From the NCBI GenBank assembly GCA_018897155.1, contig JAHILE010000043.1, positions 1-33,702 on the forward strand: a stretch of DNA of 33,702 nt. Direction: 5' to 3'. The notes beneath the pieces are model-generated. The model was not told the DNA's origin, ran no database searches, and saw only the letters and a list, made by a program, of their open reading frames with translations. This stretch comes from Nanoarchaeota archaeon (lineage in GTDB: Archaea > EX4484-52 > LFW-46). The stretch's first letter is position 1. The number at the start of each line of letters is the position of its first letter. Shown here piece by piece: positions 158 to 33,702 of this stretch. Position numbers and translations under genes: made by a program.

Positions 158-247
158 AATTGAATATAACTCGGCAGTTTCACGTAGTCCGCGAAAGCGG
201 ATTAGGGTGAGCCAGAGCGAACCGTGAAACTGCATGTTAAGCTCCCG
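158..247 (+). repeat. attC-like element 1
   Basis: The outer box ATTGAATATAAC (159-170) is followed by 3 nt and arm GCAGTTTCACG (174-184). An apical hairpin TCCGC/GCGGA follows (188-192/197-201), then a hairpin with tandem G-A pairs, GGTGAGC/GCGAACC (206-212/217-223, sharing its last C with the next arm). The complementary arm is CGTGAAACTGC (223-233), and GTTAAGC begins at 236 after 2 nt. The 11-bp stem is perfect. The layout matches elements 2-4 although their arm sequences differ. Confidence 0.75.
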
Positions 248-705
248 CTCAACAATAGAACCAAAGCGGTCGAGCACCGCAGCGAAGCGAGGAGCGGAGA
301 AGTCGAGGTCGGCGGGCGCGTCGTCGTTAGCAGTTATAACCCGGTATTTCTACTCTTTGCATACTAAGTTTATTTTGGAGTTTGACTGCGATCTGATTTG
401 CTCTTTCTTTATCTTTAGCAAGAATATGCACCGCCAAATTAACGGGGTTTGCATACTGATTGAAGCTTATCGAAATGCCATACGGATCTTTTTCGTCTGA
501 CTTCTTCAGGTCTGCACTTGTATTGTTAGGTCCAAAATGTTTCTCAAGATACGAGGGACATGTACCCAACACCTCTTCCAAATTTGTTTTAGGATCAATT
601 ATGCCATCTATTAAAATACCATCCATTTTCATATTACCACCTACTACGAGTAGTCTACGAAGGTTTATATTTCTTAGTCGCCCGCCGACCTCGATTGAGT
701 TTAAC
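236..705. mobile_element. Integron-like cassette 1
   Basis: The unit runs from the GTTAAGCTC box closing element 1 to the GAGTTTAAC box opening element 2. These ends are complementary at 8 of 9 positions, the ninth being a G-T wobble. Just inside lie 16-bp perfect inverted repeats TCGAGGTCGGCGGGCG (303-318) and CGCCCGCCGACCTCGA (679-694). The right copy abuts the outer box. About 55 nt of hairpin-forming sequence, including GCGGT/ACCGC, lies between the left box and left repeat. The cargo is one small minus-strand gene. Confidence 0.65.
327..632 (-). CDS. Hypothetical protein, 101 aa (cassette cargo)
   Basis: The frame is open further upstream, to 863, but that would read through attC-like element 2. 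The start chosen is ATG 630-632 (MKMDGIL...), because AGGTGGT, a good ribosome-binding site, lies a few bases upstream and an AAATATAAA TATA-like box lies at 664-672, about 35 nt before it. The product is soluble, with no signal peptide or membrane segment. It has a charged middle and a C-terminal stretch containing NPVNLAVHIL that should form beta strand and helix. I do not recognise the family. It is the only gene in cassette 1. Confidence 0.6.
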   Translation of the reverse strand: MKMDGILIDGIIDPKTNLEEVLGTCPSYLEKHFGPNNTSADLKKSDEKDPYGISISFNQYANPVNLAVHILAKDKERANQIAVKLQNKLSMQRVEIPGYNC

Positions 706-792
706 TCGGCGGGTTTACGAAGTTTCTGCAAAGCAGAAATTTGGGAGGAGTGAGCGAAACGAACGGAACCGTAAAGCCGCTTGTTATATTCC
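692..792 (+). repeat. attC-like element 2
   Basis: The outer box is ATTGAGTTTAAC (694-705). Arm GCGGGTTTACG (709-719) pairs with CGTAAAGCCGC (770-780) with one G-G mismatch. The apical hairpin is TTTCTGC/GCAGAAA (723-729/733-739). A second hairpin, GTGAG with loop CGAAA and CGAAC (750-764), contains tandem G-A pairs. The right box is GTTATATTCC (783-792). Compared with element 1, paired positions change together. Confidence 0.75.
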
Positions 793-1754
793 TTTTGGCG
801 AAGCCAAAAGTTCGAGGCGAAGCCGAGAAAGTTGAGTTCTCGCGATAATATTGCCGAAGGCACATGAATTAGGGAAGGGGGCGTTGCAATATCATCGACT
901 GCATCAGCGGTGCTTCATATGATTTATTCCTGTATTCTATAAGCATCCCGCGCAGCATATAACCAAAATAGAAGCGTTGGAATGAACGCCAGCGGAGTTG
1001 TAAAAAACAGATAGAAATCAATTACCCATATTGTGAATCCTAACATCATGAATGCTATTCCGCGTTTAATTTTTCCAATCGCGATGTGCCCGAAGCCTGG
1101 AACGCCCATGGACAACAAAAACAGAAACCTTTTTGCCCAGGTACTATTTTCCTCTTGCAGTGATTTATAGATTAAATATCCCGATACTAAAATCACGCCT
1201 AGCCACATAAGTATGAGCGATAAACTAGTAGCGAGTGTAAAGATAAGAGGCCAGCCTGCCTGCGACAATGCATATGCATAGATAAAATAGTCATATCGGG
1301 GGCTTGAAGGAAAAAATATGGTATAACCGGCATAAACGCAAAGCGCGATAATCCAATTAAAGATTCTTAATTTCTTAGCAATGCCCCAGTTTTTGTACGC
1401 CCAGAAATAACCTAATAAAACTACGGCAAGCTCGCTAAAAAGCCAAACGATTCCCCTCAGATCCATTCCGCTAAGTATCCATACGAAATCGCCCCACACA
1501 TGACCGTCGTTGGTCAAAAGCTCGCTTGCACCAACCTCAAGAGCCCATCCGACGGGATTTCCCGGGATAAATTCTGCTCCGCCGAATAGAGGGTAAAAAA
1601 CGAGGAATAATAGGAGATATCTTGTCAAGTCCCAAAAAAATAATTTCTTTTTACTTTCCATATTAAATCACTTGTGTAATTATGGGTTATTACTATTTTT
1701 ATTGTTCAATAAACTTCATCCCCCTTCCCGTGCGAGAACTCAATTGAATATAAC
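783..1754. mobile_element. Integron-like cassette 2
   Basis: The unit runs from GTTATATTC (783-791) to GAATATAAC (1746-1754), a perfect 9-bp inverse complement. Cassette-specific inverted repeats follow inside: TTGAGTTCTCGC (832-843) with GCGAGAACTCAA (1732-1743), and GGGAAGGGGG (872-881) with CCCCCTTCCC (1720-1729). Two hairpins lie between the left box and left repeat: CTTTTGGC/GCCAAAAG (792-810) and CGAGGCGAAGCCGAG (813-827). The latter 15-mer recurs exactly at 4014-4028 and 7849-7863. The cargo is one membrane-protein gene on the minus strand. Confidence 0.65.
924..1661 (-). CDS. Polytopic membrane protein (cassette cargo)
   Basis: The 245-aa product is hydrophobic almost throughout, with roughly six or seven predicted membrane segments. 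One starts near residue 12, others lie around 70-90, 100-118 and 135-165, and two sit in the last 65 residues. The C-terminal part has the pattern PGFGHIAIGKIKRGI...DAYR, typical of small membrane proteins related to TM2/DUF5683-type domains (PGxGxxYxGxxxRG). The specific function is unknown. The start is ATG 1661; GTGAT a few bases upstream could serve as ribosome-binding site, and an AT-rich TATA-like stretch lies near 1696-1706. It is the sole gene between elements 2 and 3 and points left, toward cassette 1's gene. Confidence 0.7.
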   Translation of the reverse strand: MESKKKLFFWDLTRYLLLFLVFYPLFGGAEFIPGNPVGWALEVGASELLTNDGHVWGDFVWILSGMDLRGIVWLFSELAVVLLGYFWAYKNWGIAKKLRIFNWIIALCVYAGYTIFFPSSPRYDYFIYAYALSQAGWPLIFTLATSLSLILMWLGVILVSGYLIYKSLQEENSTWAKRFLFLLSMGVPGFGHIAIGKIKRGIAFMMLGFTIWVIDFYLFFTTPLAFIPTLLFWLYAARDAYRIQE

Positions 1755-1843
1755 TTTGGCGTTAAGAGTAGTTTTGGCGTAGCCAAAATTAGGATGGAGA
1801 AATCTGCAAGATTTCGGAATCTCTTAATGCCTTGTTATATTCC
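1743..1843 (+). repeat. attC-like element 3
   Basis: The outer box is ATTGAATATAAC (1743-1754). Arm GGCGTTAAGAG (1758-1768) pairs with CTCTTAATGCC (1821-1831) through one G-T wobble. Hairpins are TTTTGGC/GCCAAAA (1772-1778/1782-1788) and GAAATC/GATTTC (1799-1804/1810-1815). The second stands on a symmetric GGA/GGA internal loop and a GAT/ATC stem. The right box is GTTATATTCC (1834-1843). Confidence 0.8.
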
Positions 1844-1944
1844 CCGAAGGGTTGATTTTTAGTGCAATGGTGCCGAAGGCAAAAAATCAAAGTCGCAGGG
1901 TAATTTTTATATATTTCGTTTAGGGGTTGCCGCCGTCTTTTTTG

Positions 1945-1967
1945 CTTCTTTTTTGCTAAAAAAGAAG
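1945..1967. repeat. Poly-T/poly-A hairpin in cassette 3 leader
   Basis: CTTCTTTTTT (1945-1954), loop GCT, AAAAAAGAAG (1958-1967) form a perfect 10-bp stem. Similar hairpins occur at 4316-4340 and 4362-4382 in the corresponding place of cassette 4. The T-runs could terminate archaeal transcription entering from the left, insulating the cassette promoter. Confidence 0.5.
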
Positions 1968-1998
1968 ATTGGGGGGGTTCCGTTGAAAAATAGATGAA

Positions 1999-2009
1999 TT
2001 TATATAAAT
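1999..2009 (+). promoter_or_regulatory. TATA box of the GmrSD-like gene
   Basis: TTTATATAAAT is centred about 40 nt before ATG 2044, a normal archaeal promoter position giving a short leader. Confidence 0.55.
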
Positions 2010-2043
2010 AACTATATACATCATTATATAGCTATTTTGAGCA

Positions 2044-3840
2044 ATGATAAAAATGATGGATAATAGATATACTAAAAGATTGTATGGTGTGTTTGATAAA
2101 GAGAATCAAAGACAAATACAGGTTCCAGTGTTTCAAAGAGCTTATCTTTGGGGATTAAACAATTGGGAAAAATTATTAGATGATGTAATTGGAGAAGAAG
2201 AAACCCAATTTATGGGAGTATTAATTGGTGTGGGAGAAGGGGATACTAGCTATCCAATATATACTCTTATTGATGGCCAGCAGAGACTTACTACTCTATC
2301 TTTCTTTATACTCGGTTTATATAAAAGGGTTACTGAAATCTGCGAAAATGAGCAGGACAAGGAATTAATAGTATTAAAAGACGATATTGAAAAGAGATTA
2401 ACAATAACAAAAAAAGAGAAAATATTAACAAGATTGATATTGTCTAAACAAAACTCCAACAAAGAGGACTATGAATATTTGGCTCATTTGATATTGATGC
2501 CAAACAAAAGCTATGATAAGCCTGCTAATTTTGGAAATAGGAGAATAAGTTATGGATTTAATTTCTTTTCTGAGTATTGTCAAAAGGAAGTAAAATCTCT
2601 TGAAGATGCAAAAAAGTTATATGAAAAACTCAAAAATCTAACTTTTGTAGAACTTGAAGAAGATGATTTCTCTAACGCATTTAAATTATTTGAGGTTTTG
2701 AATTATAGAGGTCTTTCGTTATCTGCTATGGATATTATAAGAAATGCTATTTTTAAAGAACTACATTCCCAAAAAAAGGATTTAATTGAATACGATAAAA
2801 TGTTTAACAGAATAATGAACAATTTATTAGATTCTACATTTCAGACAAGATTTTTAAGACAATTTTACATGGCATTTAAAGGAGATGAAACTATTACTGT
2901 TAAAGGAGTATCAAAAGCAACCATATCAAAAGTCATTATGGTTTATGAAAAATTAGCAAAAAGAAATACAATTTTTCTACTTGAAGAACTTGAAGAAAAA
3001 TCAGAGATATACAAAGAATTTATCGTTTTTGAAAATGGGAATAAATTTAGCGAATTGTACGAAAATTTAATGAATTTGGGAATATCCCCAGCATATACTC
3101 TTTTGCTTTATTCCAAATCAAAAAAAGTATTTAATGATGATAACTATGAAAAATTATTACTTCTCCTAAGAAACTTCTTTGTAAGAAGAAATATTCTTGA
3201 TATACCTCCTACTAGAGAATTAGATAATTTGTTTATGAAACTTGTTGAGACAATAGAAGAAAAAATAAAAGAGGATACGCATGAAGAAATATTATTAGAG
3301 ATTATAAAAGAAAAATTGTTCACTAGAATAGAATTAAAAAATGATGATTTATTCAAAGAAAAATTATCGGGCGATATTTATGAGATTAATACTGAAATGA
3401 CAAGATATCTTCTTTGTTTAGTAGAAGAAAATTTACGAAGTAAAGATAGCAGAATTAATCTTTGGGAGAAAAATAAATCAAATAAACTTTTATTTACAAT
3501 TGAGCATATCTTACCTCAAAAGGGATTAGGAAAAAACAACGAATGGGTAAAGGAATTAGGAGCGAATGATGAGAAAGAGGCAATAAAAATAAGGGATGAA
3601 TTTTGCCATAAATTAGGCAATCTTACTCTTACAACAAGCAATCCTAATTTATCTGATTTTAACTTTGTAGAAAAGAAAAATAGGGTTGATAGAAACAAAA
3701 AGCATGTTGGATACAATAACGGATTCAAAATAAACGAGTATGTTATGAAACAACAAAAATGGAATGTTAATCAAATAAAAGAAAGAACAGATTTTTTAAT
3801 AAATGAAATTATAGGGATATTAGAAATAAATAAAAAATAA
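2044..3840 (+). CDS. GmrSD-like restriction enzyme (DUF262-DUF1524)
   Basis: The product is a 598-aa fused GmrS/GmrD-type protein. The N-terminal DUF262 (ParB/Srx-like NTPase fold) shows QVPVFQRAYLW at 26-36 and DGQQRLTTL at 77-85. A long helical middle follows. The C-terminal DUF1524 His-Me/HNH-type nuclease shows IEHILPQ near 485-491 and HKLGNLTL near 522-529. Known relatives are Type IV enzymes that cut modified, typically glucosylated hydroxymethylcytosine, phage DNA using NTP; related fusions include other phage-defence proteins. Both motif sets look intact. It is the only gene in cassette 3, has its own TATA box, and its AT-rich codon use is unlike the neighbouring chromosome. The substrate is inference from the family; several in-frame Met codons leave the start open by a few residues. 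Confidence 0.88.
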   Translation: MIKMMDNRYTKRLYGVFDKENQRQIQVPVFQRAYLWGLNNWEKLLDDVIGEEETQFMGVLIGVGEGDTSYPIYTLIDGQQRLTTLSFFILGLYKRVTEICENEQDKELIVLKDDIEKRLTITKKEKILTRLILSKQNSNKEDYEYLAHLILMPNKSYDKPANFGNRRISYGFNFFSEYCQKEVKSLEDAKKLYEKLKNLTFVELEEDDFSNAFKLFEVLNYRGLSLSAMDIIRNAIFKELHSQKKDLIEYDKMFNRIMNNLLDSTFQTRFLRQFYMAFKGDETITVKGVSKATISKVIMVYEKLAKRNTIFLLEELEEKSEIYKEFIVFENGNKFSELYENLMNLGISPAYTLLLYSKSKKVFNDDNYEKLLLLLRNFFVRRNILDIPPTRELDNLFMKLVETIEEKIKEDTHEEILLEIIKEKLFTRIELKNDDLFKEKLSGDIYEINTEMTRYLLCLVEENLRSKDSRINLWEKNKSNKLLFTIEHILPQKGLGKNNEWVKELGANDEKEAIKIRDEFCHKLGNLTLTTSNPNLSDFNFVEKKNRVDRNKKHVGYNNGFKINEYVMKQQKWNVNQIKERTDFLINEIIGILEINKK

Positions 3841-3876
3841 GATGCCCTTTAATTACTCTAAATTCTGCACAGCAAA

Positions 3877-3898
3877 CTATCTGTTCGCAGGACTTAGG
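3877..3898. repeat. CTATCTGT-hairpin copy 1
   Basis: CTATCTGTTC, loop GCA, GGACTTAGG is the first of four related short hairpins. The others are at 4031-4051, 7865-7886 and 7920-7942. All lie downstream of cassette cargo, and all resemble CTATCTGTCC-GAA-GGACTAAGG. Confidence 0.5.
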
Positions 3899-3913
3899 AA
3901 CCCCCTATAAATT

Positions 3914-4028
3914 GGAAAAATTTGGGAGAGCAAAGCGAACCTCTTAACCTTTGTTATAGAAAGTGCAAAGCATTTTCCCGTCCCCCGTTGGTCGGTTAAG
4001 AGAAGTTTTTCTTCGAGGCGAAGCCGAG
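3914..4028. repeat. Circularly permuted attC-like element, copy 1
   Basis: The features of an attC-like element appear here with the halves exchanged. TTTGGGAGAGC..GCGAAC leads to CTCTTAACC (3941-3949), TTT and GTTATAG. Then come about 35 nt with hairpin GAAAGTGC/GCATTTTC, the box CGTTGGTC, GGTTAAGAG (3994-4002), AAG, and hairpin CGAGGCGAAGCCGAG. The two 9-nt arms are perfectly complementary. An outer GGAAAAA/TTTTTCT pairing encloses them. A second copy lies at 7757-7863. Confidence 0.6.
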
Positions 4029-4082
4029 ACAATCTGTGTGAAGCACTAAGGCGGCAACCCCGTTTTAAAAATTTACCCTGCG

Positions 4083-4181
4083 ATTGGATATAACATCGGA
4101 ATTTAACGAAGTCGCCGAAGGCGATTTGGGTGGAGAAACCTGCAAGGTTTCGGAACCGTTAAATTTCCTGTTAGTTTCTCC
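4083..4181 (+). repeat. attC-like element 4
   Basis: The outer box is ATTGGATATAAC (4083-4094). Arm GGAATTTAACG (4098-4108) pairs with CGTTAAATTTCC (4157-4168) with one bulged base. Hairpins are TCGCC/GGCGA (4112-4116/4120-4124) and GAAACC/GGTTTC (4135-4140/4146-4151), the second above a GGA/GGA loop as in element 3. The right box is GTTAGTTTC (4170-4178). Confidence 0.8.
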
Positions 4182-4410
4182 TGTTAAGGATTGATTTTTA
4201 GTGCAACGATGCTCGAAGAGCAAAAAATCAAAGTTTTTGAGAATGCCGTTCGTATTGTTTCTGAAATAATATTTTTTGGGTGGGCTATGTATTAGAGAGA
4301 CGCGCGCTTTTTTTGTTTCTTTTTTTCCTAAAAAAAGAAAATGGGGATTTCCGTCTTTTTGCTTCTTTTTTCTAAAAAGAAGTCGGGAGTTTTGATAAAA
4401 TTAATCAAAA

Positions 4411-4419
4411 GATTTATAT
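4411..4419 (+). promoter_or_regulatory. TATA box of the R-M operon
   Basis: GATTTATAT, about 50 nt before ATG 4465, is the only clear TATA-like box upstream of the operon. Transcription should start near 4440. Confidence 0.5.
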
Positions 4420-4425
4420 ATCTCT

Positions 4426-4443
4426 ACAAATAATCTTATTTGT
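4426..4443. promoter_or_regulatory. Candidate operator of the R-M operon
   Basis: ACAAATAATCTTATTTGT is a perfect inverted repeat with 8-bp arms and a 2-bp centre. It lies just downstream of the TATA box, where the transcription start is expected. A small ribbon-helix-helix-like protein is the first gene of the operon, so autoregulation is a natural reading. Confidence 0.5.
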
Positions 4444-4464
4444 GTTTATTTATGAGGTTAAAAA

Positions 4465-4620
4465 ATGGGTGAAGAAGAAAATAGAAAAAATGTAACAATT
4501 CATATTAATTCTAAAATTTATGAAGAATATTCAGAATTCTGTAAAAAGGAAGGAATAATTTTATCAAGACAAATTGAAAAATTTATAATGAATGAATTAA
4601 AAAAGGTGGATAAAAAATGA
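4465..4620 (+). CDS. Small ribbon-helix-helix-like protein, possible R-M controller
   Basis: The 51-residue product has a strand-like segment NVTIHINSKIYEEYSEFC, then a turn and a helix with LSRQIEKFIMNEL. This is the layout of CopG/Arc-type ribbon-helix-helix DNA-binding proteins. GAGGT (4454-4458) is a strong ribosome-binding site 6 nt before the ATG. The stop overlaps the methyltransferase start as ATGA (4617-4620), implying translational coupling. A palindrome at 4426-4443 in the promoter is a plausible binding site. In many R-M systems a small controller protein regulates expression; that role here is inferred from position only. An antitoxin-like protein is the alternative. Confidence 0.65.
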   Translation: MGEEENRKNVTIHINSKIYEEYSEFCKKEGIILSRQIEKFIMNELKKVDKK

Positions 4621-5780
4621 CTTTGAACTACATAGGGAGTAAATTATCTCTTTTGGATTTCATTCATTTTATTGTAGATAAAGAAATAAAAGAAAATATC
4701 TTTGTTGTTGGAGATTTGTTTGCAGGAACTGGAATTGTAGGGCAAAGTTTCAAAAGAAAGGGATACAAAATTGTTGCTAATGACATACAATATTATAGTT
4801 TTGTTTTAAATAAAAAATTTCTAACAAACAACGATTTTGTAAAATTTGAGGGATTGGTAGAGGAGATACCTAATTTACTAAATTATGAGAAAAAAGAAAG
4901 AATATTACAAGTTTTAAATTATTTGAATAATTTAAAGGAAAGAAAAAAGGGATTTATCTTTGATAATTATTCTCTTGCTGGAACAAAAGGAAAAGAATTT
5001 GAAAGAATGTATTTTTCAGATGAAAATGCTTTAAAGATTGATACAATTAGATTAAAAATTGAAGATTGGTTTAGAAATAAAAAAATAAGCGAAAGAGAAT
5101 ATTTTTATTTATTAGGAACTTTAATTGAAGCATCTGATAAGGTGGCAAATACAGCTTCGGTTTATGGTGCATTTCTAAAAAAAATAAAAAAATCTGCACA
5201 AAAGGAACTTCAATTATATTATAATGAAATTATTTTTGGTGATAAAGAGAATATAGTTTTTAATGAGGATATCTTAAAAATTTTAAATAAAGAAAAGATT
5301 GATTTATTGTATTTAGACCCCCCATATAATGCGAGACAATATTGTTCTAATTATCACATGTTAGAAACTATATCAAAATATGATAATCCAAATATCTCTG
5401 GGAAAACTGGATTAAGAGACTACCAAAAACAAAAGTCAAAATTTTGCAGTAGAAATAATGTTAAGGAAGAATTTGAAAAAATAGTAAAAACAACTAATGC
5501 AAAATATATTCTATTAAGCTATAATAATGAAGGTTTAATGTCAATAAAAGATGTTCAAGAGATACTTTCTTTAAGAGGAGAACCAAAAACATTTATACTC
5601 AAATATAAAAGATTTAAAGCAGACAAAACAGAAAATAGAAATCATAAATCCGACTTTACCTATGAATATTTACATTTTGTTAAATGTGATGAAAATATGG
5701 ATGAAATTAGAAATAAAGAATTTCCTATAATTGAGATTGATTCTAATATGTTGAATAACCAAACTAAATTAACTAATTAA
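4617..5780 (+). CDS. DNA adenine methyltransferase, D12 (Dam-like) class
   Basis: The 387-aa protein transfers methyl groups from S-adenosylmethionine to adenine N6 in DNA, as judged by family. YIGSK (5-9) matches the N-terminal motif of D12-class enzymes. DLFAGTG (33-39) is the cofactor-binding motif I. DPPY (about 234-237) is catalytic motif IV. The length exceeds Dam (about 280 aa) and leaves room for a larger target-recognition region between motifs I and IV. The start overlaps the upstream regulator by 4 nt. A second methyltransferase follows one base after the stop, so the two are co-translated. Two methylases beside one nuclease suggests an asymmetric recognition sequence with one enzyme per strand; this is inference. 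Confidence 0.88.
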   Translation: MTLNYIGSKLSLLDFIHFIVDKEIKENIFVVGDLFAGTGIVGQSFKRKGYKIVANDIQYYSFVLNKKFLTNNDFVKFEGLVEEIPNLLNYEKKERILQVLNYLNNLKERKKGFIFDNYSLAGTKGKEFERMYFSDENALKIDTIRLKIEDWFRNKKISEREYFYLLGTLIEASDKVANTASVYGAFLKKIKKSAQKELQLYYNEIIFGDKENIVFNEDILKILNKEKIDLLYLDPPYNARQYCSNYHMLETISKYDNPNISGKTGLRDYQKQKSKFCSRNNVKEEFEKIVKTTNAKYILLSYNNEGLMSIKDVQEILSLRGEPKTFILKYKRFKADKTENRNHKSDFTYEYLHFVKCDENMDEIRNKEFPIIEIDSNMLNNQTKLTN

Positions 5781-5781
5781 A

Positions 5782-6525
5782 ATGGTAGCATATAACGACT
5801 TAAATTATAACGATTGGAAAAAATATTTGGGAGATATTACGACTGACGCAATTTGGATAACTCCTAAGATTAATGGAAAGTTTGAAATTCCAAAAAGAGA
5901 CTTTTTGCCTAAAAATAGCAATACTTTTCATGGGTTGTTTATTCCTGAAATACCTTATCAATTTATTAGAAGATTTACAAAAAAAGGAGAAATTGTTTGG
6001 GATTGTTTTGGGGGTAGTGGAACAACAAAAAAAGTTTCTGATTTATTGGATAGAAAATGTATAATTAATGATATTTCTCCCCAAGAAGATTTTATTATTA
6101 AAGCAGATTCAACAACATTTAATCCTAATTCTAAAATTCATTTAATTTTTATGCACCCACCTTATCATAATATAATCAAATATTCAAATAAAAATGAAGA
6201 TGGCTCAAATTATAATTCAATTAATGAATTCTTAAATTGGTTTGAAAACGTTGTTAAAAATGTTACCCAATATTTAGAAGAAAATAGATTTTTAATTTTG
6301 GTGTGTGGAAACATTTATCAAAATGGAGAAGAACACACCTTAGGAGTTTGGTGTAAAGACATTATATTAAAATATGGATTTAAATGTAAATCCCATGTGA
6401 TAAAAGATTATGGAGAAACTAAAGGAGGAAGTAAAAATTATAACCTTAATTATTATAGGGCATTAAGAGGTAATTTTAATTCTTTTTACGGAGATAATAT
6501 TTTTATATTACAAAAGATAAATTAA
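5782..6525 (+). CDS. Second DNA methyltransferase (N6-A or N4-C)
   Basis: The 247-aa protein has FGGSGTT (76-82), the S-adenosylmethionine motif I in the FxGxGTT form, followed later by HPPY (125-128) as catalytic motif IV. The segment HGLFIPEIPYQFIRRFTKKGEI before motif I is like the stretch seen before motif I in amino-methyltransferases of the N4/N6 group. The order motif I then motif IV differs from classical beta-class enzymes. HPPY in place of DPPY or SPPY leaves the methylated base (adenine or cytosine) undecided. The ATG follows the previous stop after one base. Its 3' end overlaps the convergent nuclease gene by 4 bp. Confidence 0.8.
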   Translation: MVAYNDLNYNDWKKYLGDITTDAIWITPKINGKFEIPKRDFLPKNSNTFHGLFIPEIPYQFIRRFTKKGEIVWDCFGGSGTTKKVSDLLDRKCIINDISPQEDFIIKADSTTFNPNSKIHLIFMHPPYHNIIKYSNKNEDGSNYNSINEFLNWFENVVKNVTQYLEENRFLILVCGNIYQNGEEHTLGVWCKDIILKYGFKCKSHVIKDYGETKGGSKNYNLNYYRALRGNFNSFYGDNIFILQKIN

Positions 6526-7670
6526 TTATAATTAATCTCAGAAAACTTTAATTCTTCTCCAACTACTTCATATTCAATAAATTTTAAAGGTAAGCAATTT
6601 TGATTTTTATTATTAAATTGTTTAAATGATTCTATTATTTGCAAATATTTTTCAGAATCTTTATTGTCAAATTTTTTAGCAATTAATACTGGCTGTATTG
6701 TGCTTATTCTATTAGAGATATAATATTGTTGTAACCAATCCACATATCTTTGAAGTTGAATAACATTTAATAAAGATATTTGAACTGCTTTTAATTCAAT
6801 AGGCAAAATTAATCTTTCATCATTTCTCTTTTGTAATGATAAAGCAATATCTATTCTCTGCATTCCAACACCACAAGAAACTTCATTTCCAATCCATTCT
6901 AACTTATTGTCTTGTATAAGTAGATTTTTTAATTCATCACTTATATCCACATTTTTACAAATATATGCTTGCAGATGACTTTCAAAAGCTTTATCCTCTT
7001 TGTATTTTTGTACAAGTCTTGGTAAAACATTAATTTCCTCTTTTCTTCCAGAATAGTTATGTTTAGTCTCCGACGGAATTATTTTTTGATTATCTACATT
7101 ATAAGAAAAGTTTTGAGAATTAATTTTTTGTCTATTATTTTTATCTCTTATCAATTTAAATAATCTTTCTGTTTCATAAATCGTAATCATTGTATTTCCA
7201 CGATTACCTTTTAATTTTCTATAAATTAAACTCCATAACATTTGATTGGGAGATTGAATAAACTTTATTTCGTCTAATGCTTCCCATTCTGTAACCCCTT
7301 GTGCATAAACTTCATAAGGTTCTAATAAAACTCTAAAAGTTAATGACTTTTGTAATTCATCTTTTAAAAATTGTCCATTGTCATTATTATCCAAAAAACC
7401 ATTAGACTTAGCTTTGAATATCCCATAAAATTTTCCTTCGCCAACTTCCCTACTTTGTTGTAAGTAAAAGATTACATAATCTCCAATTCTTACTCTACTT
7501 AAATCTGCAATCATGCTAATAAGTAAATTTTCTCTTGTTGGATTAAGTTTTGATTTTGAATTATTATTAAAATCTAAGATGTAATCTTTTGCCCCTGTGC
7601 CTGCAAATAAATATTCTAAATGATACTTAAAAGTATTTTTATCAACAATGAAAACATGTGTATTTACCAT
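6522..7670 (-). CDS. Restriction endonuclease with PUA/EVE-like and PD-(D/E)XK domains
   Basis: The 382-aa protein starts with NTHVFIVDKNTFKYHLEYLFAGTG...RIGDYVIFYLQQ...GKFYGIFKA, which has the look of a PUA/EVE-type beta-barrel. The C-terminal part has RIDIALSL followed by LPIELKA, the D..ExK signature of PD-(D/E)XK nucleases. It is convergent with, and overlaps by 4 bp, the second methyltransferase, so it is the likely restriction partner. The frame is open to a GTG at 7691. I place the start at ATG 7668-7670 because ATTTATAAAT (7694-7703) lies about 28 nt upstream, giving a nearly leaderless message. The recognition sequence and EVE assignment are inference. Confidence 0.75.
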   Translation of the reverse strand: MVNTHVFIVDKNTFKYHLEYLFAGTGAKDYILDFNNNSKSKLNPTRENLLISMIADLSRVRIGDYVIFYLQQSREVGEGKFYGIFKAKSNGFLDNNDNGQFLKDELQKSLTFRVLLEPYEVYAQGVTEWEALDEIKFIQSPNQMLWSLIYRKLKGNRGNTMITIYETERLFKLIRDKNNRQKINSQNFSYNVDNQKIIPSETKHNYSGRKEEINVLPRLVQKYKEDKAFESHLQAYICKNVDISDELKNLLIQDNKLEWIGNEVSCGVGMQRIDIALSLQKRNDERLILPIELKAVQISLLNVIQLQRYVDWLQQYYISNRISTIQPVLIAKKFDNKDSEKYLQIIESFKQFNNKNQNCLPLKFIEYEVVGEELKFSEINYN

Positions 7671-7693
7671 ATTAATATTAAAGATATTCACAC

Positions 7694-7703
7694 ATTTATA
7701 AAT
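7694..7703 (-). promoter_or_regulatory. TATA box of the restriction endonuclease gene
   Basis: ATTTATAAAT is centred about 28 nt upstream of ATG 7670 on the minus strand. It supports the shorter start and a leaderless message. Confidence 0.55.
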
Positions 7704-7756
7704 ATGTTTGTTTTTTGAGAGGTCTAAAACATATTTTCAAAACTCCCGAATAAAAT

Positions 7757-7863
7757 CAGAAAAATTTGGGCGAAGCCTTTTATCCTTTGTTAGAAGAAAT
7801 TTTAATTTCTTTGTGGTTTTCGTTGGTCGGATAAAAGAAGTTTTTCTGCGAGGCGAAGCCGAG
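7757..7863. repeat. Circularly permuted attC-like element, copy 2
   Basis: Outer stem CAGAAAAA (7757-7764) pairs with TTTTTCTG (7841-7848). Inner arms CTTTTATCC (7777-7785) and GGATAAAAG (7829-7837) pair perfectly. Between them are TTTGTTA, a hairpin AGAAAT/ATTTCT and the conserved box CGTTGGTC. Hairpin CGAGGCGAAGCCGAG (7849-7863) follows. Relative to the copy at 3914-4028 the arm sequences differ, yet both pair internally. Two CTATCTGT hairpins follow at 7865-7886 and 7920-7942. Confidence 0.6.
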
Positions 7864-8023
7864 ACTATCTGTCCGAAGGACTAAGGAAATCCCCTATTAA
7901 TTCAAAAACAAAGTTTTTGCTATCTGTCCTGAAAGGACTAAGCGCGTCTCTCCTATTGGGTGGGAGAAAAAATATTATTTCCTATCTCTTTGTTTTAACT
8001 TTATCTTGTAGGCATTCTCAAAA

Positions 8024-8107
8024 ATTGAAACTAACTAGATATTCTACGGAGTAAATTCCGCTTTTTGCGCCTTTTTGTAATGAAAAGCGGAATAAAGTTG
8101 GTATAAC
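8024..8107. repeat. Array end: outer box and attI-like or degenerate attC region
   Basis: ATTGAAACTAAC (8024-8035) closes cassette 4. Beyond it the regular spacing is lost. Nineteen bases precede ATTCCGCTTTT (8055-8065), which pairs perfectly with AAAAGCGGAAT (8083-8093); AAA and GTTGGTATAAC (8097-8107) follow. On the minus strand the junction reads GAATATCTAGTTAGTTTC. This places a box-like GAATATC beside GTTAGTTTC, as in an integron attI simple site. This could be the array's insertion site or a decayed attC. Confidence 0.4.
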
Positions 8108-8250
8108 GCTCGCCTATTGAGTATTATGCTGAGTTTTGTTGGTTTTTTATTGCAATATGAAGTATTATGCAATAAAAAAGCTTGAAAATTGGACAGTCAG
8201 TACAGTGAATTTTCATGATTTTTCGCGCCCTTTTGTGGAGTTATACCAAC
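8097..8250. repeat. Inverted-repeat element overlapping the 3' end of xerA
   Basis: GTTGGTATAAC (8097-8107) and GTTATACCAAC (8240-8250) are perfect 11-bp inverted repeats. Between them are hairpins TTTTTTATTGCA/TGCAATAAAAAA (8143-8154/8168-8179) and TGAAAATT/AATTTTCA (8183-8190/8208-8215). The arrangement resembles a large attC-like or MITE-like element. It contains the last codons of xerA, and its first hairpin could terminate that gene. Confidence 0.5.
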
Positions 8251-9066
8251 TTCCGGACTATGCAAAGTGTCTAGTGGGCTCTGAATATTTTTTATTAGCG
8301 CTGTAGAAACATGTGTATATAGCTCGGTTGTCCTTACGTCAGAATGGCCAAGCAGCTTTTGAATTATGTGAATATCCGTTCCGTTCTCAAGCAGATGCGT
8401 AGCATAACTATGGCGCAGTGTATGTGGATGGACATTTTTGATTATTCCGGCAATGCTTGCGGCTTTATCCACTATCTTTTCGATTGTAGCTTCAGTAAGC
8501 CGCCCTCCTCTTGCAGAATCAAATACATAGGGGTTCTCATCATTTCTCAGGAGAATGTATGATTCAAGCCGCTTTGATAAAGTGAAAGGCAGCGATACTA
8601 CACGGTCTTTGTTGCCCTTTCCCTGCCTTACAAAAAGTATGCCTTCTTCGAACCGAATATCATCTTTTTTTAGTTTTGCGGCTTCTGATACTCTCAGGCC
8701 GCAGCCATAAACCGTTTCAATTATTAGCTTATGCTTTGTGTTTGAAATCGCAGTTATTATTCTTTGCACTTCATTCTTTGTAAGCACTTCAGGAACTCTT
8801 TTCGGGCGCTTCATAAAAGTTATGGCCATCTCCCTTCCGAGCACATTTCTGTAAAAGAACTTGACCGCACTTATCCTCAAATTCACTGTTCTCGGGTCCA
8901 TTTTTTCAGACAGACCGGCAAAATATTGCCGAATTTCGTCGTGCTCCGCCTGCGCGCCCATTCTCTTAAGAAAACATGATGTATGGAACATATACGACTT
9001 TACGGTCTTTGCGCTGAACCCTCTCGACTTAAGTTCGATTTCCAATTTGCCAAGTAATATATTCAT
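8197..9066 (-). CDS. xerA: Tyrosine recombinase, XerA type
   Basis: The 289-aa site-specific recombinase should act on dif-like sites by the tyrosine mechanism. The N-terminal SAM-like DNA-binding domain spans about 1-90. The catalytic residues are all present: R125 (GCGLRVSE), K150 (RQGKGNKD), H215 and R218 (HTLRHSYATH), H241 (LLGHSDV), Y250 (ELYTHV). The extra segment characteristic of integron integrases near the HxxR motif is absent, so sequence alone says XerA, not IntI. TTATATAT (9091-9099) lies about 29 nt before the ATG, suggesting a leaderless message. The last 20 or so residues after SPLDTL look like a read-through tail encoded inside an inverted-repeat element. It is next to an attC-like array whose outer boxes resemble an archaeal dif half-site. 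Chromosome dimer resolution is the default role, and cassette recombination is a hypothesis. Confidence 0.9.
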   Translation of the reverse strand: MNILLGKLEIELKSRGFSAKTVKSYMFHTSCFLKRMGAQAEHDEIRQYFAGLSEKMDPRTVNLRISAVKFFYRNVLGREMAITFMKRPKRVPEVLTKNEVQRIITAISNTKHKLIIETVYGCGLRVSEAAKLKKDDIRFEEGILFVRQGKGNKDRVVSLPFTLSKRLESYILLRNDENPYVFDSARGGRLTEATIEKIVDKAASIAGIIKNVHPHTLRHSYATHLLENGTDIHIIQKLLGHSDVRTTELYTHVSTALIKNIQSPLDTLHSPEVGITPQKGAKNHENSLY

Positions 9067-31624: not shown

Positions 31625-32983
31625 TTATTTGGCTGCTTTTTTATTCGCAAGTTCTTTGATCGTTTCGTAGGTGTTGAATTCCGGAGCAAGGGAGTCGTAA
31701 TTCCTGTATTTTCCGAATGCAAGCCTTTTCGCGCTCGGCCCCATATAGCCCCCGTGAAGAGGATAAATAAAATTAACGCCGTTTTTCGCAAAAGAATCGT
31801 CAAGAGTTTGCAATAAGCCGCTTTGTTCTTTTTTATTCAATTTCTGGCTGAAATCAACCGTTGGCGAAATATCCATGCTCCAATCGATAAAGGCAAAAAT
31901 CGGGGTATTGTCGTATAATCTTTTGGCGCGCGATATCTTCTCATAGCTCTCGTCAAGTTTTTTATTCAGAATTTCGTTTTCAGTCGGCGTCATTGTTACA
32001 AAATCAACACTGGACGGCATCTGCGGCAATCCTTCAATATATTTGAATGGAACCGCCCACGCCCCAACATAAATACGCTTTCCTTTTGATTCGCCGTATC
32101 TATGTATTTCGTTTATTATTTTTTCCGAAGCGCTAAATAAATCCTTAATTATGGGATGTTCTGTGTCCTTGACAAACGGGTAAAAAAGCGATGTCTGCGG
32201 CAAGCCGTCAATCCAGATTGCATCCGCTCCCGCGTCTATCTGTCTTTTAGCCCAACTTAAAAGAAGTCCTTGATAATCAGGATTTGTTATATCCGGAAAG
32301 TATGCTTCAACTTCTCTGTAATCATAGTTTTCAGATTTTGCCCATCCGTGCCAGCCGGCGAATTGCGCCTGAAATTCTTCTTTAGTAAATGGTTTACCAT
32401 TTTTTTGTATGCTCCATTTTTGCGGGTCAAGCGCCATTGCCCATGTTTCATTAGTAGTATAGACTTTCCCAGTTATATCGTTTTTATCTATCCTATTGAT
32501 ACGTTGGGCAGGTATTGCTCCCACGAATATAACATTTGGCATTTCCCTTTTTATCGCAGATATCCTTTTTTCAAGTTCTTGGTAATTATAGCCACTTTTC
32601 TCGACCAGCAACGGAATCTGCTCTGGCTTGATCCCCGTGCGTTCCGCATATTCTTTTACGATCTCGGGTGGAATATTTTCCGGAGAATCGAAAGCAGGAA
32701 GCCATCTCCAGAAGCTGCGGAATACCATGTCTGCATGAGTCTCATTAAGAATCCGGATGACATCGCCGGTGCTTCTTTGCGGCCCTAAGGGCGGCTCATC
32801 AATTATATTTTGGTAAAGAACCGCGACCTTTACTTTGCTTAAATCGTTTTTTGGGTCTGCCCAGTCGCTGCTTAGTGTATTGTTTATTTTCTCTGGCATT
32901 TGGGGTGGGACATGCTGAATTATCAAAACTGCAACAATTGCGATAAACAATACTGCCGCAAAAATTAAGATTTTTTTGTTCAT
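31625..32983 (-). CDS. Anchored TIM-barrel protein B, probable glycoside hydrolase
   Basis: The 452-aa protein is a paralogue of the one at 26524-27915. It shares the MNKKIL anchor, DPKNDLSKVKVAVLYQ (DLSRVKVATVYE in A), a shared MPxVIFVGAIP, GADAIWIDGLPQ, YVGAWAVP, and a C-terminal LAFGKYRNYDSLAPEFNTYETIKELA. Asp residues in IWIDG and AFIDWS occupy the same strand-end positions as in A. The family is unrecognised, and extracellular glycan processing is inferred from its neighbours. It lies 5 bp downstream of the partial GH13 gene and is part of the same minus-strand run. Confidence 0.75.
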   Translation of the reverse strand: MNKKILIFAAVLFIAIVAVLIIQHVPPQMPEKINNTLSSDWADPKNDLSKVKVAVLYQNIIDEPPLGPQRSTGDVIRILNETHADMVFRSFWRWLPAFDSPENIPPEIVKEYAERTGIKPEQIPLLVEKSGYNYQELEKRISAIKREMPNVIFVGAIPAQRINRIDKNDITGKVYTTNETWAMALDPQKWSIQKNGKPFTKEEFQAQFAGWHGWAKSENYDYREVEAYFPDITNPDYQGLLLSWAKRQIDAGADAIWIDGLPQTSLFYPFVKDTEHPIIKDLFSASEKIINEIHRYGESKGKRIYVGAWAVPFKYIEGLPQMPSSVDFVTMTPTENEILNKKLDESYEKISRAKRLYDNTPIFAFIDWSMDISPTVDFSQKLNKKEQSGLLQTLDDSFAKNGVNFIYPLHGGYMGPSAKRLAFGKYRNYDSLAPEFNTYETIKELANKKAAK

Positions 32984-32988
32984 ATATT

Positions 32989-33702
32989 TTACCTTTTAAT
33001 TGTTAATATCCTTGAGCCGTAAGCAGGCACAATTATCTTAAAATTAGCAAAATCGCTAACGGTAAAAGTTTCGCCGTTCAATTCGTCTGTCAATCGCGTT
33101 CCGTTTGGAAACGGAATATTCAAAACGGTTTCCGCCTGCTTGCCGTTGAAATTAATTATGACAATGACAGCTTCATTTTCATAAGTCCTTGAATAGGCAT
33201 AAATATTATCGCCTGACTTCCAGATATTTTTAATGTCGCCGTATTTCAGGGCGTTGCTGGAATTGCGGATAGAAAAAACTTTTTTATAAAACTGCCATAA
33301 ATCTGAATTGGTGTCATAGTTAGATAAATCAAAAGCTTGTTTTTTTATGTTTCCTGTTTCCTGCCCCGCATATATCATCGGCACTCCCGGAATTGTGGAT
33401 ATCATAGCCAGCAAAGCCTTATTCTGCTTCGGATAAGCCGCCTGCACTCTTTGCGTATCATGATTTTCAGAAAAATGAGATCTGGTTCGGTTATTTTTTA
33501 TATTTTCCTTTATCATATAATTAACCAAGTCCTGAGAAGTCGCTTTATTGTTCACAATCTTGTCAAGAAATCCGTCTTTATAGGTAATTGATCCGATGGG
33601 AAGTTTTGTCGGATAGTTCAGCCATCCGGAAAAATACCAATTATACGATGCCTCCGCGTACTCGTCAAAAGCGGTATCGCAAGTTTCCGGAGCTCGTTCG
33701 CA
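32989..33702 (-). CDS. GH13 alpha-amylase-family protein C (5' end outside window)
   Basis: The frame is open from the right edge, giving 237 residues that begin CERAPETC. A GTG at 33555 is only an internal codon. SEASYNWYFSGWLNYP-like sequence precedes it (read here as AEASYNWYFSGWLNYPTKLP), typical of a GH13 barrel after the acid/base strand. HFSENHDTQRV is region IV with the catalytic His-Asp. MIYAGQETG and a C-terminal beta domain with FSIRNSSNALKYGDIKN follow. The last 100 residues are nearly the same as in the GH13 protein at 27921-29705, so the two derive from a duplication. The catalytic nucleophile lies outside the window. Confidence 0.88.
   Translation of the reverse strand, partial: CERAPETCDTAFDEYAEASYNWYFSGWLNYPTKLPIGSITYKDGFLDKIVNNKATSQDLVNYMIKENIKNNRTRSHFSENHDTQRVQAAYPKQNKALLAMISTIPGVPMIYAGQETGNIKKQAFDLSNYDTNSDLWQFYKKVFSIRNSSNALKYGDIKNIWKSGDNIYAYSRTYENEAVIVIINFNGKQAETVLNIPFPNGTRLTDELNGETFTVSDFANFKIIVPAYGSRILTIKR

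What the first reader, a model, noticed from the sequence alone, without database searches (positions are those of the whole stretch)
236..8035. Cassette-end complementarity follows the integron rule in four consecutive units
In an integron the last bases of an attC belong to the next cassette, so the start of a cassette should complement the R'' box at its own end. That is what I see. Unit 1 pairs GTTAAGCTC with GAGTTTAAC (one wobble), unit 2 GTTATATTC with GAATATAAC, unit 3 GTTATATTCC with GGATATAAC (one extra T), and unit 4 GTTAGTTTC with GAAACTAAC. Unit 4 differs from the others yet still matches itself over 3.9 kb. This is strong evidence that units move as circles joined at this box.
Basis: seen in the sequence. 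Interest (0 to 1): 0.85.

Follow-up and report, generated by a model that had tools for sequence, protein, structure and literature searches.

The report
Archaeal integron-like array lacking true integrase
A small archaeon carries a row of swappable gene cassettes that obeys the integron rule (each cassette's two ends match each other), but the enzyme beside it lacks the part thought essential for integrons, and the same system turns up across tiny archaea and tiny bacteria, so it may show how integrons began.

Summary
Four units (236-8035) have start and end boxes that complement each other (5, 6, 5 and 6 of 6 variable bases). Alone this is weak: one other arrangement of the same boxes scores as well. 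A covariance model of the element found the family in 26 of 34 genomes of the order and, through a conserved core, in many DPANN archaea and CPR bacteria. In 94 units (91 outside the window) boxes pair within units (5.1 and 4.5 of 6), not within elements (3.2 and 2.8), far beyond permutations. A near-identical cassette shared by an archaeon and CPR bacteria ends exactly at the predicted crossover. Read from the lone attI-like box at 8035, the array runs leftward.

Two things are new. First, the adjacent recombinase is XerA-like and lacks the IntI-specific insertion; none of 83 searched genomes has a true IntI. Second, unit ends match further: a 12-18 nt cassette-specific arm (S), beside the box on one side and behind a structured insert (X) on the other, in 51 of 74 cassettes. 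In the excised circle these would close a junction about 14 kcal/mol more stable; three class 1 cassettes lack it.

It works like an integron but fails its defining integrase test: a new variant. Circles and activity are inferred.

The parts
8197..9066 (-). Tyrosine recombinase, 289 aa, XerA_Arch/NF040815 family, without the IntI-specific insertion; its 3' end faces the array (type B arrangement)
   Evidence: Invariant R125, K153, H215, R218, H241 and Y250 in the 13-protein alignment
8027..8110 (-). attI-like site: lone box (minus strand GTTAGTTTC) next to an inverted repeat (8055-8065 with 8083-8093)
   Evidence: Sequence; same layout beside other recombinases (L039-L041, L043; L047, L048, L052, L154, L169, L198)
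4086..4178 (-). attC-like element e3 (R boxes plus branched hairpin body)
   Evidence: R1 model 86.7 bits; fold
1746..1842 (-). attC-like element e2
   Evidence: R1 model 101.7 bits
697..791 (-). attC-like element e1
   Evidence: R1 model 75.1 bits
162..244 (-). attC-like element e0; the cassette to its left is cut by the contig end
   Evidence: R1 model 59.1 bits
4094..8034 (-).
   Evidence: Boxes AGTTTC/AGTTTC, S arm 14 nt; Pfam and PADLOC
1754..4093 (-). Cassette 2 (unit 3): GmrSD-type restriction enzyme, antisense to the array
   Evidence: Boxes 5 of 6, S 16 nt with one mismatch; PF03235 and PF07510
705..1753 (-). Cassette 3 (unit 2): 245-aa protein of no known family, sense
   Evidence: Boxes 6 of 6, S 12 nt
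170..704 (-). Cassette 4 (unit 1): about 101-aa protein, sense
   Evidence: Boxes 5 of 6, S 16 nt
303..318 (.). S arm of unit 1, partner 679-694
   Evidence: TCGAGGTCGGCGGGCG and its reverse complement
832..843 (.). S arm of unit 2, partner 1732-1743
   Evidence: TTGAGTTCTCGC and its reverse complement
1893..1908 (.). S arm of unit 3, partner about 4068-4083 (first 11 nt exact)
4234..4247 (.). S arm of unit 4, partner 8011-8024
   Evidence: TTTTTGAGAATGCC and its reverse complement
245..302 (.). X insert of unit 1, between box and S
792..831 (.). X insert of unit 2 (two hairpins)
1843..1892 (.). X insert of unit 3
4179..4233 (.). X insert of unit 4

Best explanation
This is an integron-like gene-cassette array on an archaeal chromosome, run by a XerA-type tyrosine recombinase that lacks the integron-integrase (I2) insertion. 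Shown from sequence: on the minus strand the order is attI-like site (about 8035), then cassettes, each beginning TT-N6-AAT-S and ending S'-X-N6'-AAC-body-G, so that boxes (N6) and arms (S) of one cassette complement each other; the body travels with the cassette whose X adjoins it; shared cassettes end at the AAC. Inferred: the recombinase cuts at G|TT (AA|C on the other strand), releases a cassette as a circle, and inserts circles at attI or between cassettes, using a folded single strand of the element as substrate. Also inferred: in the free circle S pairs with S' around the element, giving a three-way junction (S stem, X arm, R-box stem with body) that is lost once the cassette is in the array, which would favour capture over loss.
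For: Box rule in 49 + 45 units with permutation and element controls. S arms in 51 of 74 cassettes against 4 of 625 mismatched pairs; offset 8 in 50 of 51, first base T in 51 of 51, matching falls to background after about 16 nt. Circle junction more stable than the foreign-end version in 51 of 51, mean -42.0 against -28.2 kcal/mol. All located elements lie on one side of the recombinase with one polarity in 14 loci of DPANN and CPR. Lone box and inverted repeat at the recombinase. Of 492 near-identical body pairs the X-side flank alone is conserved in 150, the other flank alone in 5. A 707-nt block at 88-91% identity in a Woesearchaeon, a Microgenomates bacterium and a Campbellbacterium ends at the AAC. 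Longest ORFs run in the canonical sense in 53 against 18 cassettes. Catalytic residues invariant. Stem covariation: 8 of 14 consensus pairs change on both sides.
Against: No recombination, circle or strand choice was observed. The recombinase lacks the insertion held essential in integrons. In 23 of 74 cassettes no S arm scoring 10 or more was found. Extra-helical bases, which set strand choice in attC, are not clearly placed: bulges fall on either arm. Many loci are metagenome bins and could be misassigned. Units 3 and 4 of the window carry genes against the array direction.
Confidence: 0.8

Rival explanations
1. An ordinary archaeal integron as already reported, its IntI being elsewhere in the genome or divergent.
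For: Archaeal integrons are known (PMC9668308); most of those were clusters without IntI. TIGR02249 is the second-best family for the recombinase, and the C-terminal SPL(D) motif is shared with IntI.
Against: 0 of 34 genomes of the order and 0 of 49 other genomes with elements reach the IntI cut-off, while the same search rings in 2 of 51 genomes of another phylum and IntI1 scores 508.6 bits. Box I to HxLRH spacing is 61-68 residues against 106-107 in IntI. The array recombinase is the one next to attI. S arms are absent from three class 1 cassettes.
Confidence: 0.1
2. Units are transposon-like elements with imperfect terminal inverted repeats inserted next to REP-like palindromes.
For: Boxes plus S arms amount to 18-24 nt inverted ends; the elements are palindromic and repeated.
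Against: No transposase in the units seen; ends differ from unit to unit but match within each; elements separate every unit; polarity and the attI-like site at a tyrosine recombinase are constant.
Confidence: 0.04
3. The structures act as RNA (terminators or small RNAs) and the end pairing arose by fold-back copying when cassettes were born, with no continuing recombination.
For: X and the bodies are well-structured with conserved TGCAA loops; S arms look like fold-back copies.
Against: Exact cassette ends in distant genomes and linkage of the body to one side only need recombination at the box. No Rfam family above threshold.
Confidence: 0.05

Closest known systems
Integron (IntI, attI, attC cassettes; class 1 and chromosomal)
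   Same: Array of cassettes on one side of a tyrosine recombinase, lone attI-type box, attC-like hairpins with GTT/AAC boxes, start-end box rule (also seen in three class 1 cassettes), genes mostly in one sense
   Different: Recombinase lacks the IntI insertion; cassette ends carry S arms and an X insert; conserved branched element body; extra-helical bases not clearly placed
Archaeal integrons and CALINs (Ghaly et al. 2022, PMC9668308)
   Same: attC clusters in archaeal MAGs, including Nanoarchaeota and Aenigmatarchaeota; restriction-modification cargo; cross-domain sharing
   Different: Their IntIs carry the IntI-specific domain; here no IntI is found and a XerA-like enzyme is linked to the arrays. 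Some of their CALINs may be this system; this was not testable here
Archaeal XerA / dif
   Same: Recombinase family NF040815 above cut-off (234.7 against 220); nearest solved folds 4a8e and 5hxy
   Different: Linked to cassette arrays; forms its own clade apart from the second Xer of the same genomes
Xer-dependent pdif modules of Acinetobacter plasmids (from own knowledge, not tested)
   Same: Gene modules moved by a Xer-type recombinase without IntI
   Different: pdif modules are flanked by short double-strand dif-like sites, not by long hairpin elements with cassette-specific ends

Membership tests
Integron | Integrase with the IntI-specific insertion in the catalytic domain | tested here: not met
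   positive controls
Integron | attC-type sites: R''/R' boxes (AAC...GTT) around an imperfect stem with unpaired spacer and terminal structure | tested here: met
   stem covariation; unpaired spacer commonest at 3/1 or 4/1 nt
Integron | Extra-helical bases on the R''-L'' arm that set the strand | tested here: inconclusive
   Of 167 elements with a stem, bulges on one arm in 67, the other in 32, both in 21, none in 47
Integron | Boxes complement within a cassette rather than within an attC | tested here: met
   class 1 control
Integron | attI next to the integrase gene | tested here: met
   Lone box plus inverted repeat beside the recombinase; binding not tested
Integron | Cassette genes mostly in one orientation | tested here: met
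   53 against 18, p 4e-5
Integron | Integrase excises circles and inserts them at attI | not testable with these tools
   Only indirect: shared cassettes with exact ends
[quoted passage not shown]
   NF040815 above cut-off for the window's enzyme and for 6 of 7 others scanned
Archaeal XerA/dif chromosome-dimer resolution | Housekeeping Xer clade of its lineage | tested here: not met
   Window enzyme groups with array recombinases; the genome's second Xer (G000:C19, L051) lies in another clade, 98/88
pdif modules | Modules bounded by short dif-like XerC/XerD sites | not tested
   The boundaries seen are long hairpin elements

The most novel reading that the evidence does not exclude
A separate class of cassette system, shared by DPANN archaea and CPR bacteria, in which hairpin attC sites work with a tyrosine recombinase that never had the I2 domain, and in which a circle-only three-way junction makes capture directional. 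It would be a living stage, or a parallel, of the step from Xer to integron.
Probability: 0.35. Interest if true: 0.92.

Novelty: new variant of a known kind. Interest (0 to 1): 0.82.

Why it matters
Integron integrases differ from Xer enzymes by the I2 insertion that reads folded attC. Escudero et al. [quoted passage not shown] Here are natural arrays of attC-like sites tied to enzymes without the domain, so the question can be tested with purified proteins. The S/X ends suggest a substrate that differs between free circle and array, a simple route to directional capture. If active, this is a gene-capture route across tiny-genome archaea and bacteria that tools demanding IntI would miss.

Tried and rejected
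Element core in viral contigs: none. Rfam: only wcaG at 28.8 bits, under its 42 cut-off, at 4312-4396; taken as chance. Ungapped complementarity beyond the box: nothing at positions 7-30; it appeared only when an offset was allowed. Homologous cassettes as a test of which body travels: too few pairs, and both bodies differed; replaced by the body-pair test. True-IntI arrays in Deferribacteres-phylum genomes as a control for S arms: no attC array recognised, so the control rests on three class 1 cassettes. Gammaproteobacterial chromosomal integrons could not be reached. No earlier report of the combination in the held library; subscription papers and preprints are not held. DNA model against 18 other genomes: 15 without a hit, including both genomes with true IntI.

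Full report
WHAT WAS CHECKED. Within the window the pairing scores 22 of 24 variable bases against 16 of 24 within elements, but four units alone cannot decide: one other assignment ties because units 2 and 3 start with the same box. So the test had to go outside the window.

ELEMENT FAMILY. The window is G000:C43, part of an archaeal bin of 1.43 Mb; genes for aIF5B/IF2 and DUF655 lie to the right of the array. Ten elements from the window and from neighbours of homologous recombinases aligned over 102 columns, and 8 of 14 consensus pairs change on both sides. A covariance model found the element in 26 of 34 genomes of the order (which is the whole phylum held) with up to 34 copies per genome. 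The rest of the 33.7 kb window gave no hit, and 15 of 18 other genomes gave none. An exact pattern of the element core hit 98 stretches of named genomes: Nanohal-, Aenigm-, Woese-, Pace-, Nano- and Altiarchaeota, ANME-1, Methanoperedenaceae, and CPR bacteria such as Uhr-, Buchanan-, Peregrini-, Campbellbacteria and Microgenomates. It hit no viral contig and no Rfam family above threshold.

THE RULE HOLDS. Over 49 consecutive units of the order the six bases beyond GTT match the unit's other end 5.08 times of 6, against 3.21 for the two boxes of one element. Positions 1-6 stand at 0.76-0.96, positions 7 and 8 at 0.06 and 0.00. Shuffling ends among all units, or only within a locus, never reached the observed value in 20,000 trials each. 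A second set of 45 units from named genomes, mostly other phyla, gave 4.53 against 2.85. Some failures are expected where an intervening element was missed.

POLARITY. In L047, L048, L052 and L054 the unit next to the recombinase ends in a lone box just before the recombinase start codon; the match to its partner is 9 of 9 in L048, 8 of 9 in L047 and L052, and 7 of 9 in L054. Beside it lies an inverted repeat. In 14 type A loci all located elements lie upstream of the gene with one polarity. In the window, L043 and L045 the gene is flipped but the polarity relative to the lone box is the same. Bodies more than 80% identical in different loci keep only the X-side flank in 150 pairs and only the other flank in 5. 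Longest ORFs follow the canonical sense 53 to 18. Crossover at AA|C (plus strand), that is G|TT (minus strand), is inferred.

MOBILITY. A block of about 707 nt coding for a 171-aa protein, 88-91% identical, occurs in a Woesearchaeon (L157), a Microgenomates bacterium (L160) and a Campbellbacterium (L210). It ends at the AAC of the following element in L157 and L210 and begins inside the preceding body. Other shared blocks (L142/L197, L047/L048, L122/L183) begin or end within about 8 nt of the AAC. Binning errors are possible for short contigs; the L160 contig is 311,798 bases long.

THE RECOMBINASE IS NOT INTI. It exceeds the XerA_Arch cut-off (234.7 against 220) and misses the integron-integrase cut-off (205.1 against 265), matching that profile only in two separated parts. 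Its alignment to the solved Vibrio integrase skips residues 184-235. No genome of the order (0 of 34) and none of 49 other element-bearing genomes has a match above the IntI cut-off. IntI1 passes at 508.6 bits, and 2 of 51 genomes of the phylum of G104 pass (one of these is nearly identical to IntI1). The spacing from the box I region to HxLRH is 61-68 residues wherever the motifs were found in the array and other Xer-like recombinases here, 69 and 73 in E. coli XerC and XerD, and 106-107 in four IntIs. In the tree IntI is one clade (100/100), the DPANN array enzymes largely another (95/96), the CPR ones a third (100/100), and the second Xer of the window's genome falls elsewhere; the deep order is unresolved. 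The C-terminal SPL(D) motif is shared with IntI. Nearest solved folds are XerA and the Vibrio integrase; the model is fair (pLDDT 84.3).

THE SECOND LAYER. Local alignment of unit ends showed a perfect or near-perfect 12-18 nt inverted arm S. On one side it begins eight bases beyond the GTT/AAC; on the other it follows an insert X of 21-69 nt. It scores 10 or more in 51 of 74 cassettes that obey the box rule, against 4 of 625 mismatched pairs. The offset is 8 in 50 of 51, the first base T in 51 of 51, X ends in AG in 46 of 51, and the match falls to background after about 16 bases. There are 45 distinct S sequences, so this is covariation and not a shared motif. Joining the ends as in a free circle gives a multibranched fold with mean -42.0 kcal/mol against -28.2 with a foreign end (51 of 51 lower). 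S was counted as found because it pairs, so lower energy is partly built in; the size and the fixed geometry are not. Three class 1 cassettes obey the box rule (5, 5 and 6 of 6) but have no S: end-anchored score 5 each, one start-anchored score 7, against a null median of 5 and 95% at 7.

MECHANISM. Shown: architecture, polarity, boundaries, absence of the insertion, S/X geometry. Inferred: circles, cleavage point, folded single strand as substrate, and the idea that the S stem forms only in the circle and so favours insertion over excision. The element's spacer and stem resemble the features defined for attC in PMC2727003, but extra-helical bases, read in integrons by the I2 domain, are not consistently on one arm, which is what one might expect without that domain.

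KNOWN OR NEW. Ghaly et al. 2022 report archaeal integrons whose IntIs carry the specific domain, and many attC clusters without IntI; some of those may be this system. Smyshlyaev et al. [quoted passage not shown] No held paper describes arrays run by an enzyme without it, nor the S/X ends. It is filed as a new variant: it works like an integron and fails one defining test.

Noticed in passing
window 3914-4040 and 7758-7875; also L047 6323-6480, L048 4968-5130, L183 5857-6010, L139 2860-3020 (-): A conserved element of about 130 nt near the end of several cassettes that looks like a circularly permuted attC (right half, then a GTT box and small hairpin, then left half); stems covary and 74 columns are invariant in six copies.
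   Followed up: partly
window 4617-7691: Cassette 1 holds a D12 methyltransferase, a second methyltransferase whose profile matches suggest circular permutation, and a 389-aa protein of no known family on the other strand: probably a restriction-modification system with an unrecognised nuclease.
   Followed up: no
G000:C46 about 32170-32996 (L038, L045): A second, broken copy of the array recombinase (68-76% identical, in-frame stops) with an element about 2 kb away, in the same genome.
   Followed up: no
L103 8964 and L194 4265 units: Two cassettes in different genomes share about 150 nt at one end and 130 nt at the other at 90% identity but differ in between and in length (2661 and 1740 nt): same ends, different cargo.
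   Followed up: no
element bodies and X inserts: Mini-hairpins with a TGCAA loop (CTGCAAG or GTGCAAC) recur in 109 of 199 element bodies and in many X inserts.
   Followed up: partly
attI-like sites upstream of L052, L053, L054 recombinases: The inverted repeat next to the lone box ends in GTT directly overlapping or abutting the recombinase start codon, so recombination at attI could affect its translation.
   Followed up: no
KX853513.1 (L267), Virus Rctr41k: A virus from a methane-oxidising enrichment encodes a full-length IntI-type integrase annotated xerD, with the 106-residue spacing.
   Followed up: no
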